Shown here: positions 32,104 to 40,137 of the stretch, one piece after another
How the letters are laid out: the number at the start of each line of letters is the position of its first letter
Numbering within the stretch: the first letter of the stretch is position 1
DNA from: Rhodobium orientis
GTDB taxonomy: Bacteria > Pseudomonadota > Alphaproteobacteria > Rhizobiales > Rhodobiaceae
Assembly (NCBI RefSeq): GCF_003258835.1
Contig: NZ_NPEV01000028.1
Location: forward strand, 1-64,000
Length of the DNA: 64,000 nt
Reading direction: 5' to 3'
Program-made: the position numbers and the translations under genes
The notes under the pieces: model-generated
Seen by the model: the letters and a program-made list of their open reading frames with translations, nothing else
Told to the model about the DNA's origin: nothing
The model's database searches: none

Positions 32104-33039
32104 TCAGCCGTCCTCGGAGAAGAAGTCCTCGTCGAGGCGCTGGACCTGGATGGTGCGGTGGGGACGGGTTCCGACGCCGTGTTCGATCATCAGATCGGCG
32201 AGCCGGTTGCCGTCGATCAGGATGACCCGCTGTGGCAGATTCTTGGCGTAGCTGACGGCGCCGCTGGAGAAAGTGGAGGCGGTGACGAAGACACCCTTGG
32301 TGGCGCCGAAGCCGACCAGCGAGCCGACGAAGCCCTGAACGGCCGGCCGGCAGATGGTGTTCTCCTCCGCATAGCGCTTGGCCTGGACGTAGATGCGGTC
32401 AAGGCCGAGCCGGTCCTCGTTGATGACCCCGTCCACCCCGCCATCGCCGGAACGTCCCAACTGCTCGGCCGCGTTCTTGTGCGAGCCGCCATAGCCCATG
32501 GCGACCAGCAGGTCGACGATGAGTTTTTCGAAGAAGGCCGGTGAGTTCTCCCGGATGCGGTCGAGGAGGTCGGCCCTCAGCGCGGCGTTCAGCGAGCGGT
32601 AGGCAGCCTCGATCTGCTCCTCTGGTGTCTCGGTTTCGTCCACGACGATGGCGGGTTCGCGGTCAGAGACCCGGTCGTTGCTGCTGCCCTTGCTGTGGCT
32701 GCTCTCGTAAAACTCCCGGAACCCCGGATAATCCATCAGCATCCGGGTGTCGAGGCGGGTGGGGTTGGATGCAAGCAATTCCCGGCCGGCCTCGGAGGCG
32801 ACGAAGCGGCCGCGCGCCGGGCTGTCGATCAGACCGGCCTTGGTCATGTAGAATTTCGCCCAGTGGATGCGGTTGTGCAGCACCCGCTGGCGCCCGCTCG
32901 GCAACATCTCCTCGCGCTCGTCGGGTGCGAGCCCCAACTCGTCGGCCATCTTTTCGGCGACCTCCGGCACCCGCGTTTCGCCCTTAGCGGCAATGCGCAG
33001 CACGGGAAGCATCAAGGTCTGGTAGTCCGGGATCGCCAT
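32104..33039 (-). CDS. Mrr-type restriction endonuclease
   Basis: The 311-residue protein has an N-terminal Mrr winged-helix region (about residues 1-90, IPDYQTLMLPVLRIAA and RVLHNRIHWAKFYMTKAGLI). The C-terminal PD-(D/E)xK domain (about residues 165-290) has GRSGDGGVDGVI and IYVQAKRY, i.e. D-x(n)-QxK, a known Mrr variant. Such enzymes cut modified or foreign DNA. No methyltransferase is adjacent, so a type IV, modification-dependent role is likely. The ATG at 33039 marks the conserved start. Confidence 0.88.
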   Translation of the reverse strand: MAIPDYQTLMLPVLRIAAKGETRVPEVAEKMADELGLAPDEREEMLPSGRQRVLHNRIHWAKFYMTKAGLIDSPARGRFVASEAGRELLASNPTRLDTRMLMDYPGFREFYESSHSKGSSNDRVSDREPAIVVDETETPEEQIEAAYRSLNAALRADLLDRIRENSPAFFEKLIVDLLVAMGYGGSHKNAAEQLGRSGDGGVDGVINEDRLGLDRIYVQAKRYAEENTICRPAVQGFVGSLVGFGATKGVFVTASTFSSGAVSYAKNLPQRVILIDGNRLADLMIEHGVGTRPHRTIQVQRLDEDFFSEDG

Positions 33040-33317
33040 GTCGCTCCAACTTTGCCTCTGGGTTCCGCCGCGGTCGAACCGCCAGGAGGCGTGACCGTCA
33101 TCGGGAGAGCGTAGTTGCCTGCGTCTCACTCTTCAATTGAGAGCTGGGTCGCACAAAGAGTCAGATCGGTCGGCTTCGGTCCTCGTGCAGCCACCCATTG
33201 TGAGACCTTTGCTTGCTGCTGTCCCAGGCAAGCATTAGGTCGAGCCGCCGGAAAAACGGGGCTTACGCGGCGAATGGAACATTGATGCGTGTCACTCGAC
33301 TTGGAGTCACCGGAAAT

Positions 33318-33441: not shown

Positions 33442-33451
33442 AAAGAAATGG

Positions 33452-33523
33452 CGCTCCCTAGGGGAGTCGAACCCCTCTTTCCAGATTGAAAATCTGGCGT
33501 CCTAACCGATAGACGAAGGGAGC
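33452..33523 (-). tRNA. tRNA-Glu (anticodon TTC)
   Basis: A full cloverleaf on the minus strand: acceptor GCTCCCT/AGGGAGC, D arm with GGTTA, anticodon stem CCAGA/TCTGG with loop TTTTCAA (anticodon TTC), and a T loop TTCGACT. The CCA end is not encoded. Confidence 0.95.
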
Positions 33524-36841: not shown

Positions 36842-36918
36842 GACCCCGTAGCTCAGCCGGATAGAGCAGCTGACTTCTAATCAGCAGGTCGCAGGTTCGA
36901 ATCCTGCCGGGGTCGCCA
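36842..36918 (+). tRNA. tRNA-Arg (anticodon TCT)
   Basis: Cloverleaf with acceptor GACCCCG/CGGGGTC, D arm with CCGGATA, anticodon loop CTTCTAA (anticodon TCT), T loop TTCGAAT, and an encoded CCA (36916-36918). The tRNA is intact; the prophage end lies about 43 bases beyond it. Confidence 0.96.
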
Positions 36919-36960: not shown

Positions 36961-37005
36961 TGTAGCGCGCAAAATCAAATGGCGCGGCGCGCAAGATCGG
37001 ATGGC
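36961..37005. repeat. Candidate prophage right end with two transposase-binding repeats
   Basis: TGTA at 36961 is followed by GCGCGCAAAATCAAATGGC (36965-36983) and GCGCGCAAGATCGGATGGC (36987-37005). They match at 16 of 19 positions and start 22 bp apart. MuA end-binding sites are of similar size and spacing, and Mu-family ends begin with TG. A second TG candidate lies at 36951. The other end is outside the window. Confidence 0.65.
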
Positions 37006-37011
37006 AACAGT

Positions 37012-37599
37012 TCAGGCGGCGGCGAGACGCCCGGCTAAGACGCGGCTGTCCTGATCATCCGCCGGCAGGAAGCCATGAAGGGCGGCGTGCGAAACGGCGG
37101 TGTTGATGAGGTCTATCCCCATCGGGGCCAAAGCCCTGCGCCAAAGGGAGCGAGCGTCGTCATCGGGCCAGACAAAGCACCAATCGGCGAAGACAATCGG
37201 CCCGGCGTCGGTGTCGTCCGTGAGGTGATAGATCGTCCCGCCGGTGATGCGATCACCGGCGCGGATCGTCTGCTCTATGGAATCGCGGCCCCGGTGCAGC
37301 GGCAACAGCGACGGGTGATACCCAATTGCCCCGAGGCGGGCTTGGCCGCGCGCGCCGGTGTCGACAAACGCATGGGCATGGGCGGCAACGATGAGGTCGA
37401 CCGGCCCGCAAATATCGGCGGCCTCAACGCGCCGGCGACCGCCCAGGGCAACAACGCGAACGCCATCACGTGCGGCCGCCTGTGCTAGACGATCTTCCGA
37501 AGCAGGAGCCACAACCGCGGCAACCCGGCCGAACGCCGCCAGGTTCCTGTAGACCTCAGCGCCGAACCACCGGCTACCGACTATCGCAATCTGCATCAT
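37012..37599 (-). CDS. Formyltransferase-fold protein, last gene of the com/mom-like operon
   Basis: The 195-residue protein has a methionyl-tRNA/GAR formyltransferase-like fold: MQIAIVGSRWFGAEVYRNL at the start, then HPSLLPLHRGRDSIEQTI and GGTIYHLTDDTDAGPIV. The catalytic His and Asp of the family are visible. The Asn two residues before the His (NxH) is replaced by Gly (GYH). It lacks the C-terminal tRNA-binding domain of Fmt. GGAGGG precedes the ATG at 37599, and the start overlaps the stop of the ATPase-GNAT gene in ATGA. The context suggests a role in modifying phage DNA; this is inference. Formyl or related one-carbon transfer is the likely chemistry. Confidence 0.72.
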   Translation of the reverse strand: MMQIAIVGSRWFGAEVYRNLAAFGRVAAVVAPASEDRLAQAAARDGVRVVALGGRRRVEAADICGPVDLIVAAHAHAFVDTGARGQARLGAIGYHPSLLPLHRGRDSIEQTIRAGDRITGGTIYHLTDDTDAGPIVFADWCFVWPDDDARSLWRRALAPMGIDLINTAVSHAALHGFLPADDQDSRVLAGRLAAA

Positions 37600-38687
37600 A
37601 GTCCCTCCACGTAACGAAAGCCTTGGACCGCCCGAAAGTGCCCGCCGTAGCCGGCTTTGCCCGATGATCGCGCGCTCTTGACCTTGTTTGCGCCATGAAG
37701 AATGGCGCTGATCTGCGTCCATTTCGGGTCGCGCCGCAACGCCGCCGCCAATCCGGGGTGCGAGGTGTGAAAAAGGGTCAGCATCGGCTTGCCGTAGCGA
37801 TTCTGACCGCGCCTCCAGGCCGCGCAAACGGCGTTTAAGAACCGCATGCCGACGCCGGCGCCCTGCCATTCGGGCATCACGACAAGGCGGCACGCGCGCG
37901 CTTCTACCAGCCCAGGTCGGGTAGACACCGCCACATGCGCTACCGGCTGGCCCCCGACGAAACCGACATAGTTAAATGCCGCGATCATCTTCGGAGCTTT
38001 CAGATAATGATGGGGCTCGAAAAGCGGCCAATATCGCCAGTTGGTCTCGAAAACGTCGACTTCGATGGAAGGCCGGCGTCGAAGGCACCTCCCGGAAAAC
38101 TTGCCGGTCGCCGTATCGAGGATCCAATCCGGCTGAAGCCATTCGATGATGTCGTAATGGCAGGACAACAGCACGGCTTGGCCGCCAGACCGGCGCCAGG
38201 CCTTCGAGAAGGCAAAGGCGCCAATTCGGGCGATTTGCCGATCGACGACGGACGTGAACTCGTCGACGACAACGCGGGCCGGCTTTTCAGCCACAATGCG
38301 GGCGAGATCGGCGCGAAACCGCTCGCCATTGGACAACACGGCGTACGGGCGTACCCAAGCGGGAACCGACCCCAGGCCAACGGCGGAAAGCGCGGCCGTC
38401 ACGTCGTCAAACGCGCCGTCCGGCAGAATGGCGTCGATGATTGGTGCTTTGCCCGGCCAGCCCACCGGGCGGTAAAAGGCCGCCTTGCCAAAAAGCCGTT
38501 TGCCGATCGACGTCTTCCCGGACCCGGATGGGCCTACAATGAGGCCAATCCCCCAATCGTTGCCATCGATCGGCAGATCGACCGTAAGGTCGAAACGGTG
38601 CCCATCCTCGCAATTGAACAGGGATTTGACGCGCGCCGCCCGGTAGCTTTCGAAGGTGTTGCAGGAGTGGTGGATGTCGACCCTCAT
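37596..38687 (-). CDS. ABC-type ATPase fused to a GNAT/Mom-like acyltransferase domain
   Basis: The 363-residue protein has two parts. Residues 1-~200 form an ABC-ATPase with Walker A GPSGSGKTS (52-60), signature-like LSNGERFRADLARI (119-132), Walker B ARVVVDEF (137-144) and an H-loop-like LLSCHYDII. Residues ~210-363 look like a GNAT domain (VAHVAVSTRPG, CRLVVMPEWQGAGVGMRFLNAV), the fold of Mu Mom. It lies downstream of a Com-like gene at the right end of a Mu-like prophage, the position of mom in Mu. The start at 38687 overlaps the 63-aa gene's stop in ATGA. A role in adenine or other base hypermodification is inferred. It is not an ABC transporter component, as no membrane protein is near. 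Confidence 0.75.
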   Translation of the reverse strand: MRVDIHHSCNTFESYRAARVKSLFNCEDGHRFDLTVDLPIDGNDWGIGLIVGPSGSGKTSIGKRLFGKAAFYRPVGWPGKAPIIDAILPDGAFDDVTAALSAVGLGSVPAWVRPYAVLSNGERFRADLARIVAEKPARVVVDEFTSVVDRQIARIGAFAFSKAWRRSGGQAVLLSCHYDIIEWLQPDWILDTATGKFSGRCLRRRPSIEVDVFETNWRYWPLFEPHHYLKAPKMIAAFNYVGFVGGQPVAHVAVSTRPGLVEARACRLVVMPEWQGAGVGMRFLNAVCAAWRRGQNRYGKPMLTLFHTSHPGLAAALRRDPKWTQISAILHGANKVKSARSSGKAGYGGHFRAVQGFRYVEGL

Positions 38688-38875
38688 GTCACAACCACCC
38701 GGAGCTTGGACGAACAAACGGCCCGCAGGCCTTCATAGACCGCCTTCTGTGCCTCCTCATCGGGGCAGACGACAATCACGCCGTATTGCTCCTTGTATCG
38801 GGTTCCGCGCGGTTTTCCCGGTGCGCCGTCGGGCAAACAAGGGAGCGCGCCGGACCGGGCTTTTTCTTCAGCCAC
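38684..38875 (-). CDS. 63-residue phage protein of unknown function between com and the ATPase-GNAT gene
   Basis: The small protein has a GTG start with a perfect-distance AAGGAGG (38882-38888) and ends in an ATGA overlap with the next gene, so it is real and coupled. The core RGTRYKEQYGVIVVCPDEEA is probably a compact beta-alpha domain. I recognise no enzyme motif. Its ribosome-binding region is paired in a hairpin, so its translation, and by coupling that of the two genes after it, is probably controlled by Com. Confidence 0.65.
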   Translation of the reverse strand: MAEEKARSGALPCLPDGAPGKPRGTRYKEQYGVIVVCPDEEAQKAVYEGLRAVCSSKLRVVVT

Positions 38876-38946
38876 AAGAGGCCTCCTTTTTCAAAGACGC
38901 TCGCGGGCGTTCGCTCGGTTTTTCTGGGAGGGCTCGGGGCCTCTTG
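38875..38946 (-). promoter_or_regulatory. Translation-blocking hairpin between com and the next gene
   Basis: In the mRNA (minus strand), CAAGAGGCC (38938-38946) is perfectly complementary to GGCCTCTTG (38875-38883). The 3' arm contains the last two bases of the Shine-Dalgarno AAGGAGG, the whole spacer and the G of the GTG start. The 54-base loop carries a smaller ACGC/GCGT hairpin. In Mu, the zinc-finger protein Com opens a comparable structure at the mom start. Confidence 0.65.
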
Positions 38947-38955
38947 GGGGACCGG

Positions 38956-39126
38956 TCAGGGCCGGGTTTCGCGCCGGGCGGCTCCGGTCTTTTCGGGCCT
39001 AGCAGGAGGTCCGAATCTATTGATGTCGCCGCATCGGCGGCACTTGATTTCTATCACGTTTCCAAGGCGATTTGAATCCGCCTTGAAGAGCAGCGCGTCG
39101 CAGGCACTACAGCGTATGGACTCCAT
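38956..39126 (-). CDS. com: Com-like zinc-finger translational regulator
   Basis: The 56-residue protein MESIRCSACDALLFKAD... has C6/C9 and C29/C32 pairs forming a zinc finger. It closely follows the N-terminus of Mu Com, the protein that binds mom mRNA and lets it be translated. Length and C-terminal basic tail agree with the family. It lies 80 bases upstream of the 63-aa gene, with a hairpin between. Three GANTC sites (39119, 39132, 39143) cluster at its start codon. The Shine-Dalgarno is weak. Confidence 0.85.
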   Translation of the reverse strand: MESIRCSACDALLFKADSNRLGNVIEIKCRRCGDINRFGPPARPEKTGAARRETRP

Positions 39127-39516
39127 ATGAGGACTCGTCGTTGAATCCCCCCGCCGTGCATGTGTGTGGACGGCAGCGGCGGGGACGGCGTTGTGCTTCA
39201 TGGCGTCGGCCGGGACTGAGTTGGCGCTTGGCCCGGCGCTTGGAGCGCTGCAACGCTCCGGGCTCCCCGCTCCTTTGAGCAGGCGAACGGCAAATGGGTT
39301 GGACCCGAAAATGGCTTTGATCCGAAAGAAGCCGCGCTTCGTCGCAGTTCTCCTTCGGTTAATCATCGTGTTTTTGGTCGGCGGCATCACACTGATTGTC
39401 GCCGGTCACGTGATGGGGCTCGATTCGTCGGCCGTGCTCAGTTCGGCCCAGAAAGCGTTTTGCCGATGGTGGATGGCAAACTGGAAGACGGCCGCGCATG
39501 CGCCCGCGAGTGGATC

Positions 39517-40137
39517 ATGTCCTTGGGGCCGATCGTCGGTGCTTTGTTGGCCGTTCTTGCTGCCACTCTGGCAGCCCGACCGGTTTGGCGGCAGTTGCGA
39601 ATTCAAACGCGCCGGGAACTCATTGAGGAACTCCGACTGACCTACAAAGAGCACGAGAAATACAAGCAAGCGCTTGCCGTCGTCGAACGGTTTGATTTCC
39701 CCCGCCGACGCGTGGTGGACGCCCTCATCAAAGTGAAAATAGGCGACTACGCTCCGACCATGACGGTTGACCAGGTGAGAACAGCCACGGAGGAGATAAA
39801 AGCTGTATCCCACGAGATCGCGGAGCGACAAATCGATGACACAATAGAAATTGGCCAGCTTTTCGGTGCCCGTGACGGGCTTTTGGACGCTCTTAATGAT
39901 CTGCGTGAGTTCGTTGACTCCGACGGGGCCGAATTGGTAGCGGCCGCTTTTGTCGGTCCCAAATTGAATGGCAAGCATCCGACGCCGCAAGAAACGGCCG
40001 CCATCGAAGAAGGCCTCAAACAGCGCGTCGAGAGTGCAAGAGAGGCCTGCAATCATTATATTGCTGCCATAGTAGAAAATGCGAAAGGAATCCGCCGAGA
40101 AATCGAAAAGGTCAGCAACGGCCTGTTCGAAGCCTGA
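39517..40137 (+). CDS. Membrane-anchored helical protein on the opposite strand, unknown function
   Basis: The 206-residue protein has an N-terminal membrane segment (GPIVGALLAVLAATLAA) followed by long charged helices with LRLTYKEHEKYKQALAVVERFDF and a C-terminal coiled-coil-like stretch. It is on the plus strand inside a minus-strand phage operon and has lower GC than its neighbours, as expected of an accessory (moron) gene. The frame is open back to a TTG at 39460. Upstream, another frame (39311-39640) encodes a plausible membrane helix (VLLRLIIVFLVGGITLIVAG) before it degrades. The pair may be overlapping small membrane genes or one gene with a frameshift. Confidence 0.55.
   Translation: MSLGPIVGALLAVLAATLAARPVWRQLRIQTRRELIEELRLTYKEHEKYKQALAVVERFDFPRRRVVDALIKVKIGDYAPTMTVDQVRTATEEIKAVSHEIAERQIDDTIEIGQLFGARDGLLDALNDLREFVDSDGAELVAAAFVGPKLNGKHPTPQETAAIEEGLKQRVESAREACNHYIAAIVENAKGIRREIEKVSNGLFEA

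What the first reader, a model, noticed from the sequence alone, without database searches (positions are those of the whole stretch)
36961..39126. Com/mom-like right-end operon with an ABC-ATPase-GNAT fusion and a formyltransferase
Seen: at the extreme right end of a Mu-like prophage lie a Com-like Cys4 zinc finger (C6/C9/C29/C32), a 63-aa protein, a 363-aa ABC-ATPase fused to a GNAT-like domain, and a 195-aa formyltransferase. The last three are joined by two ATGA overlaps. Known: Mu carries com and mom here; Mom has a GNAT fold and hypermodifies adenines to resist restriction. Inference: this operon is a more elaborate DNA base-modification system in which an ATPase and a formyl-group chemistry replace or extend the Mom reaction. 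The host carries an Mrr-type (modification-targeting) endonuclease 4 kb away, which makes anti-restriction a natural context.
Basis: partly seen in the sequence, partly recalled or inferred. Interest (0 to 1): 0.92.

Follow-up and report, generated by a model that had tools for sequence, protein, structure and literature searches.

The report
Com-controlled phage DNA-acylation operon
The right end of a Mu-like virus in this bacterial genome carries, under the same RNA switch that phage Mu uses for its DNA-protecting enzyme, a recurrent but untested set of genes that probably decorates the virus DNA with an acyl group, likely involving one-carbon (formyl) chemistry, so that host restriction enzymes miss it.

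Summary
The four-gene operon is real and recurrent. It lies 51 bp inside the right end of a Mu-like prophage (TGTA ends, 5-bp duplication TAGGT, intact site in a relative). Com is a true Mu Com homologue. Downstream of com is a hairpin 14/17 identical to the RNA that Mu Com binds, with a compensatory stem change; such hairpins occur in 79% of 98 Com-bearing relatives (8% in shuffles). Elsewhere Com is followed almost always by DNA methyltransferases or Mom, so the Com setting itself argues that this operon modifies DNA. The 363-aa protein is an intact ABC ATPase plus a GNAT domain with a CoA-binding loop: GNAT fold, but not Mom family. The 63-aa protein is the free-standing tail of a ParB-like protein that precedes ABC-GNAT in other phages; Com and ParB never occur together. 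The 'formyltransferase' sits beside ABC-GNAT in 129 of 156 loci; it is closest to the 10-formyl-THF dehydrogenase hydrolase domain and lacks the usual catalytic Asn. ABC-GNAT was already predicted by others to acylate DNA bases; the Com switch, the split-off ParB tail and the folate-type partner are, as far as I could search, not described. Chemistry is inferred, not shown.

The parts
36961..37004 (.). right end of the Mu-like prophage with two transposase-site-like repeats (36965-36982 and 36987-37004); host 5-bp duplication TAGGT lies just outside
   Evidence: same TGTA..CGCGCAA end on C211, TAGGT at both ends, uninterrupted site in congener G001
37012..37599 (-). formyltransferase-fold protein, 195 aa; His95 and Asp131 kept, catalytic Asn replaced by Gly93
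   Evidence: PF00551 E 6e-17; profile nearest to 10-formyl-THF dehydrogenase N-domain E 2e-42; residue counts
37596..38687 (-). ABC ATPase (about residues 1-200) fused to GNAT acyltransferase (about 205-363)
   Evidence: phrog_11143 E 3e-151; invariant ATPase and CoA-loop motifs; confident models and fold matches
38684..38875 (-). 63-aa protein, free-standing version of the C-terminal tail of ParB-like proteins
   Evidence: profile comparison E 2.6e-25, probability 99.7%; phrog_28816 E 5e-9
38896..38912 (-). Com-type RNA hairpin GAACGCCCGCGAGCGUC (stem ACGC/GCGU, loop CCGCGA)
   Evidence: 14/17 identical to the Mu Com-binding RNA with a compensatory U-A to C-G change; family statistics
38875..38946 (-). 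possible translation-blocking stem: 38946-38938 (CAAGAGGCC) with 38883-38875 (GGCCUCUUG, whose last G is the first base of the GTG start)
   Evidence: predicted fold z -1.78; not shown to be conserved
38956..39126 (-). com, 56-aa Cys4 RNA-binding translational activator
   Evidence: 43% identity to Mu Com, E 2e-10; PF10122

Best explanation
This is a Com-controlled anti-restriction operon of a Mu-like phage. Late in infection Com binds the hairpin between com and the 63-aa gene and opens translation of the three overlapping genes, as Mu Com does for mom. The 63-aa ParB tail docks on the ABC-GNAT protein; the ABC ATPase uses ATP to load onto or open DNA, and the GNAT domain transfers an acyl group from a CoA thioester to an exocyclic base amine (adenine N6 or cytosine N4). 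The formyl-THF-dehydrogenase-like protein adds folate one-carbon chemistry: it either charges the carrier thiol with formyl for the GNAT domain or formylates the group that the GNAT domain has placed. Shown by comparison: the Com hairpin, intact motifs, the ParB tail and the fixed gene partnership. Inferred: DNA as substrate (strong, from the Com company), acyl transfer (moderate), formyl (weak to moderate), docking by the tail, and anti-restriction as the benefit.
For: Position and ends like Mu com/mom. Com homology. Hairpin 14/17 identical to the Mu target, the only such match in 64 kb, where 0.29 is expected, and lying outside the com reading frame. In 98 Com loci 79% have the hairpin against 8% in shuffles, while ParB loci (19 vs 10%) and tail-only loci (10 vs 7%) do not stand out; covariation score 0.378 against 0.150 in shuffles and at most 0.161 when slid. 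Of 80 Com loci found by searching with Com rather than ABC-GNAT, 60 are followed by DNA methyltransferases by motif, 5 by Mom and 4 by ABC-GNAT; ten sampled proteins all match methyltransferase families, nine of them DNA methylase families. ATPase motifs and Q-x-x-G-x-G CoA loop invariant in 69 sequences. GNAT fold matches acetyl-CoA enzymes. Formyltransferase partner in 129 of 156 loci. ASCH-domain genes follow ABC-GNAT in two phages, and the ASCH protein YqfB removes acyl groups from N4-acylcytosine (PMC6972931). The ABC-GNAT pair was predicted earlier to acylate DNA bases (PMC7824862).
Against: No biochemical data. GNAT enzymes often modify proteins or small molecules. The formyltransferase is missing from 12-13 Com loci and from the distant ParB relatives (Jace, LE4, Pmp13), so it is not essential to the core reaction. 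It lacks the usual catalytic Asn, so formyl transfer itself is uncertain. The translation-blocking stem is supported in this sequence only marginally.
Confidence: 0.7

Rival explanations
1. The operon modifies DNA with an ordinary acyl group such as acetyl, and the formyltransferase-fold protein is an accessory that makes or recycles the donor (for example a formyl-THF hydrolase), leaving no formyl in DNA.
For: Nearest known relative is the hydrolase domain of 10-formyl-THF dehydrogenase; active-site Asn lost; relatives without this gene keep ABC-GNAT.
Against: The tight overlapping gene order in most relatives suggests a step in the same pathway; a pure hydrolase has no obvious use here.
Confidence: 0.3
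2. The operon modifies RNA or a host protein (for example RNA polymerase, a tRNA or a defence protein) rather than DNA.
For: GNAT domains most often act on proteins and the best fold matches are such enzymes; tRNA genes lie near the module in two phages.
Against: In the other Com loci sampled, Com precedes DNA-modifying genes; ParB-type DNA-binding partner in relatives; protection genes at the mom position.
Confidence: 0.12
3. The GNAT domain is a true Mom and the product is Mom's methylcarbamoyl-adenine.
For: Same operon position, same Com switch, same fold class.
Against: No detectable sequence relation to Mom; Mom structure not among the best 50; canonical CoA loop invariant.
Confidence: 0.04
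4. Co-location is incidental: unrelated accessory genes at a variable phage end.
For: Mu-like right ends are variable; 12-13 Com loci lack the formyltransferase.
Against: 129 of 156 loci keep the pair with overlaps, across several bacterial phyla and non-Mu phages; the tail protein is adjacent in 162 of 165 hits.
Confidence: 0.03

Closest known systems
Phage Mu com-mom operon
   Same: Cys4 Com, Com hairpin ahead of the target start codon, extreme right end of a transposable phage, GNAT-fold enzyme, probable anti-restriction role
   Different: Target operon is ParB tail + ABC-GNAT + formyltransferase; GNAT not of the Mom family; ATP and folate chemistry added
ABC ATPase-GNAT DNA base acylation system predicted by Iyer et al. 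2013 (as cited in PMC7824862; Tenacibaculum phage pT24)
   Same: pT24 ABC and GNAT are homologues of this protein (E 1e-44)
   Different: pT24 and most distant relatives lack Com and the formyltransferase; many carry a ParB-like gene in front. I could not read the 2013 paper, so whether it mentions ParB or formyltransferase is unknown
10-formyltetrahydrofolate dehydrogenase, N-terminal hydrolase domain
   Same: best profile match (E 2e-42), shared Y-H-P-S-L-L-P and D-x-G motifs, loss of the usual Asn
   Different: stand-alone, no carrier or dehydrogenase domains, phage operon
Gordonia phage genes 1-3 (Axumite and others)
   Same: ABC-GNAT plus formyltransferase-fold gene in the same order
   Different: full ParB-like protein instead of the free tail, no Com, beside terminase at the left end

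Membership tests
Com (Mu translational activator) | Cys4 zinc ribbon alignable with Mu Com | tested here: met
   43% identity, E 2e-10; PF10122 above cut-off
Com (Mu translational activator) | hairpin with CC(N)2-3GAG-type loop just ahead of the target start | tested here: met
   against the Mu RNA in PMC6483171
Com (Mu translational activator) | start codon sequestered in an inhibitory stem | tested here: inconclusive
   9-bp stem in the window, z -1.78; family-wide p 0.04 and no contrast with Com-less loci
Mu-like transposable phage | 5-bp target duplication and TG..CA ends | tested here: met
   TAGGT at both ends, empty site in G001
Mu-like transposable phage | Mu-type transposase in the same element | tested here: met
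   PF09299 E 4e-12 on C211 beside the left end; the assembly gap between the contigs was not closed
Mom | sequence membership of the Mom family (PF25680) | tested here: not met
   no PF25680 hit; profile comparison probability 0.4%
Mom | GNAT fold | tested here: met
GNAT acyltransferase | Q/R-x-x-G-x-G/A acyl-CoA loop | tested here: met
   Q275-G-A-G-V-G280 (Q275, G278, G280 invariant) in alignment A1
ABC ATPase | Walker A, signature LSxGE, Walker B DE, D-loop, H-loop | tested here: met
   near 100% conserved
Folate formyltransferase | formyltransferase fold by sequence | tested here: met
   PF00551 E 6e-17; PDB profile hits
Folate formyltransferase | catalytic Asn-His-Asp triad | tested here: not met
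   His and Asp 100%, Asn position Gly in 86%
DNA base modification system | modified nucleoside in DNA | not testable with these tools
   needs mass spectrometry

The most novel reading that the evidence does not exclude
DNA formylation: the formyl-THF-dehydrogenase-like protein moves formyl from 10-formyl-THF onto the phosphopantetheine thiol of CoA (the dehydrogenase does this to its own phosphopantetheine arm, from general knowledge), and the ATP-driven GNAT domain puts it on a base amine, giving an N-formyl base in phage DNA; or a two-step acyl group capped by formyl, in the manner of formyl-methionyl-tRNA.
Probability: 0.3. Interest if true: 0.9.

Novelty: new variant of a known kind. Interest (0 to 1): 0.72.

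Why it matters
It links a predicted but untested class of DNA-acylating enzyme to a classic regulatory switch, and offers a cheap test: express three short genes and look for a new nucleoside. It also suggests that Com is not Mom's private activator but a general late switch for DNA-modifying genes of Mu-like phages, so the Com hairpin can be used to find new DNA-modifying enzymes.

Tried and rejected
Mom membership of the GNAT domain: rejected. Mrr as context: host gene, not at this place in the congener. A conserved start-blocking stem across the family: inconclusive. Whole-model fold search only returned ABC domains, so the GNAT half was modelled alone. GNAT half against PDB by sequence: no hits. 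PF02914 transposase search rang nowhere, controls included, so says nothing. phrog_11143 across 289 genomes of the class: only the window's own genome has a full-length match, the rest are ordinary ABC domains. The quick tree clusters Com and ParB labels but does not resolve how often they were exchanged. The tool's consensus fold found only the first hairpin because loop length varies. Papers on a Com-methyltransferase link or an ABC-GNAT-formyltransferase link: none found in the open library; the Iyer 2013 paper is not held.

Full report
Observation. The four genes are present as described, on the minus strand, and the last three are joined by two ATGA overlaps. com encodes a 56-aa Cys4 protein with cysteines at 6, 9, 29 and 32. 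Pfam and PHROGs both call it Com, and it is 43% identical to Mu Com.

Element. The prophage right end is at 36961 (TGTAGCGCGC...). The left end (TGTAACGCGC...) is on contig C211 near 111730. Both ends are flanked by TAGGT, a 5-bp duplication, and congener G001 holds the two host flanks together without a phage. C211 also carries a Mu-type transposase next to that end. The genes from 40 kb rightwards are sheath, tape measure, portal and head genes. The formyltransferase stop codon is 51 bp from the end, which is the mom position. tRNA-Arg at 36842-36918 is host sequence.

The ABC-GNAT protein. It matches PHROG 11143, of unknown function, over its whole length (E 3e-151). Sixty-seven phage records in the phage collection hold a relative, and large numbers of viral contigs and bacterial genomes do too. 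Walker A, the LSxGE signature, Walker B, the D-loop and the H-loop are essentially invariant, as are the GNAT CoA loop Q275-x-x-G-x-G and a set of histidines (HHYL, HTSHP, GGH). AlphaFold models are confident (mean pLDDT 90 and 92). The N half matches ABC ATPases, the C half acetyl-CoA GNATs such as RimI, PA4794 and HP0935 with TM-scores of about 0.6. Mom has a solved structure (8bv8) that is not among the 50 best, and there is no profile similarity to Mom; a Mom model from another phage comes in at rank 46 of viral models. So it is a GNAT, not a Mom.

The 63-aa protein. In phages that are not Mu-like, ABC-GNAT is preceded by a ParB-like protein (Gordonia phages, Jace, LE4, Pmp13; ParB_N confirmed). 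The last 45 residues of that protein are homologous to the small protein (profile E 2.6e-25; individual hits down to 1e-24). The tail is next to ABC-GNAT in 162 of 165 hits. In the table, Com occurs in 107 loci and ParB in 26, and never together. In Mu-like phages the ParB part is absent and only the tail remains, which points to the tail as an obligatory partner of ABC-GNAT (inference).

The formyltransferase-fold protein. It lies beside ABC-GNAT in 129 of 156 loci with room (the sample leans to close relatives of the query). The profile is closest to the hydrolase domain of 10-formyl-THF dehydrogenase (E 2e-42, against 1e-29 for methionyl-tRNA formyltransferase). The catalytic His and Asp are kept in all sequences, but the Asn of ordinary formyltransferases is Gly in 86%. 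In the dehydrogenase that Asn position is Ile in the aligned sequences. The label formyltransferase is therefore a fold assignment, not a demonstrated activity.

Com operator. The Com-binding RNA of Mu mom is GAAUGCCUGCGAGCAUCCC, and Com recognises CC(N)2-3GAG presented in a hairpin loop, with the GA essential (PMC6483171). The window has GAACGCCCGCGAGCGUC at 38912-38896: 14 of 17 identical, two of the three changes forming a compensatory U-A to C-G pair. It is the only match with up to three mismatches in the 64 kb (0.29 expected), and lies after the com stop codon, so coding constraint does not explain it. In 98 Com-bearing loci 79% carry such a hairpin against 8% in shuffles; ParB loci (19 vs 10%) and tail-only loci (10 vs 7%) do not stand out. 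Many have two hairpins about 22 nt apart. On an alignment of 54 sequences the two stems pair in 76% of cells (62% in shuffles, at most 51% when slid) with a covariation score of 0.378 (0.150 in shuffles). In most other loci the hairpins overlap the end of com, so coding constraint is a caveat there. A longer stem (38946-38938 with 38883-38875) could hide the GTG start as the Mu inhibitory structure does, but this rests on one sequence (z -1.78).

What Com keeps company with. A search for Com itself gave 80 viral loci. By motif, 60 are followed by DNA methyltransferases (C5-cytosine, Dam-type, N4/N6), 5 by Mom and 4 by ABC-GNAT; several of the unclassified ones are also methyltransferases, and most of these loci carry the hairpin. 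The few Com-like genes not followed by a modifying enzyme look like other zinc ribbons. Being a Com target is thus itself evidence for DNA modification.

Mechanism. The best reading is a Com-switched, ATP-driven DNA acyltransferase with a folate-linked helper. ATPase-GNAT fusions that acylate nucleic acid have a precedent in tRNA cytidine acetyltransferase TmcA (general knowledge, not tested here). ASCH genes after ABC-GNAT in Oenococcus and Streptococcus phages fit an N4-acylcytosine theme, since YqfB, an ASCH protein, hydrolyses such bases (PMC6972931). Whether the added group is formyl is open; 10-formyl-THF dehydrogenase passes formyl to a phosphopantetheine thiol (general knowledge), and CoA ends in the same thiol, which makes formyl-CoA as GNAT donor a concrete and testable idea.

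Known and new. That ABC-GNAT acylates DNA bases was predicted by Iyer et al. 2013 (as stated in PMC7824862; the original could not be read). I found no description of the Com control, the ParB-tail identity of the small protein, the dehydrogenase-like partner or the general Com-methyltransferase link, but the library is open-access only.

Noticed in passing
L217-L296 (Com loci): Com, with its hairpin, precedes many kinds of DNA methyltransferase at Mu-like ends, not just mom: a general late switch for DNA-modifying genes and a handle for finding new ones.
   Followed up: partly
window 32104-33129: Host Mrr endonuclease beside tRNA-Glu (33449-33523); in congener G001 its counterpart is on another contig, so it may sit on an island.
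   Followed up: partly
window 39460-40137 (+): 225-aa open frame with a hydrophobic N-terminus on the strand opposite to the late genes, between com and the tail genes; no family match. Possibly a moron.
   Followed up: no
L005, L008: ASCH-domain gene directly after ABC-GNAT, a possible reader or remover of an N-acyl base.
   Followed up: partly
L008:3308-3386 and L009:784-859: tRNA-Tyr and tRNA-Asn genes near the ParB-ABC-GNAT module; unexplained.
   Followed up: no
L005, L007, L008: ABC and GNAT parts are annotated as separate genes (Oenococcus, pT24, MismyG), so the fusion may not be universal.
   Followed up: no
contigs C165 (65356 b) and C211: The prophage is split over two contigs; the piece between C165:65356 and C211:125539 is missing from the assembly.
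   Followed up: no
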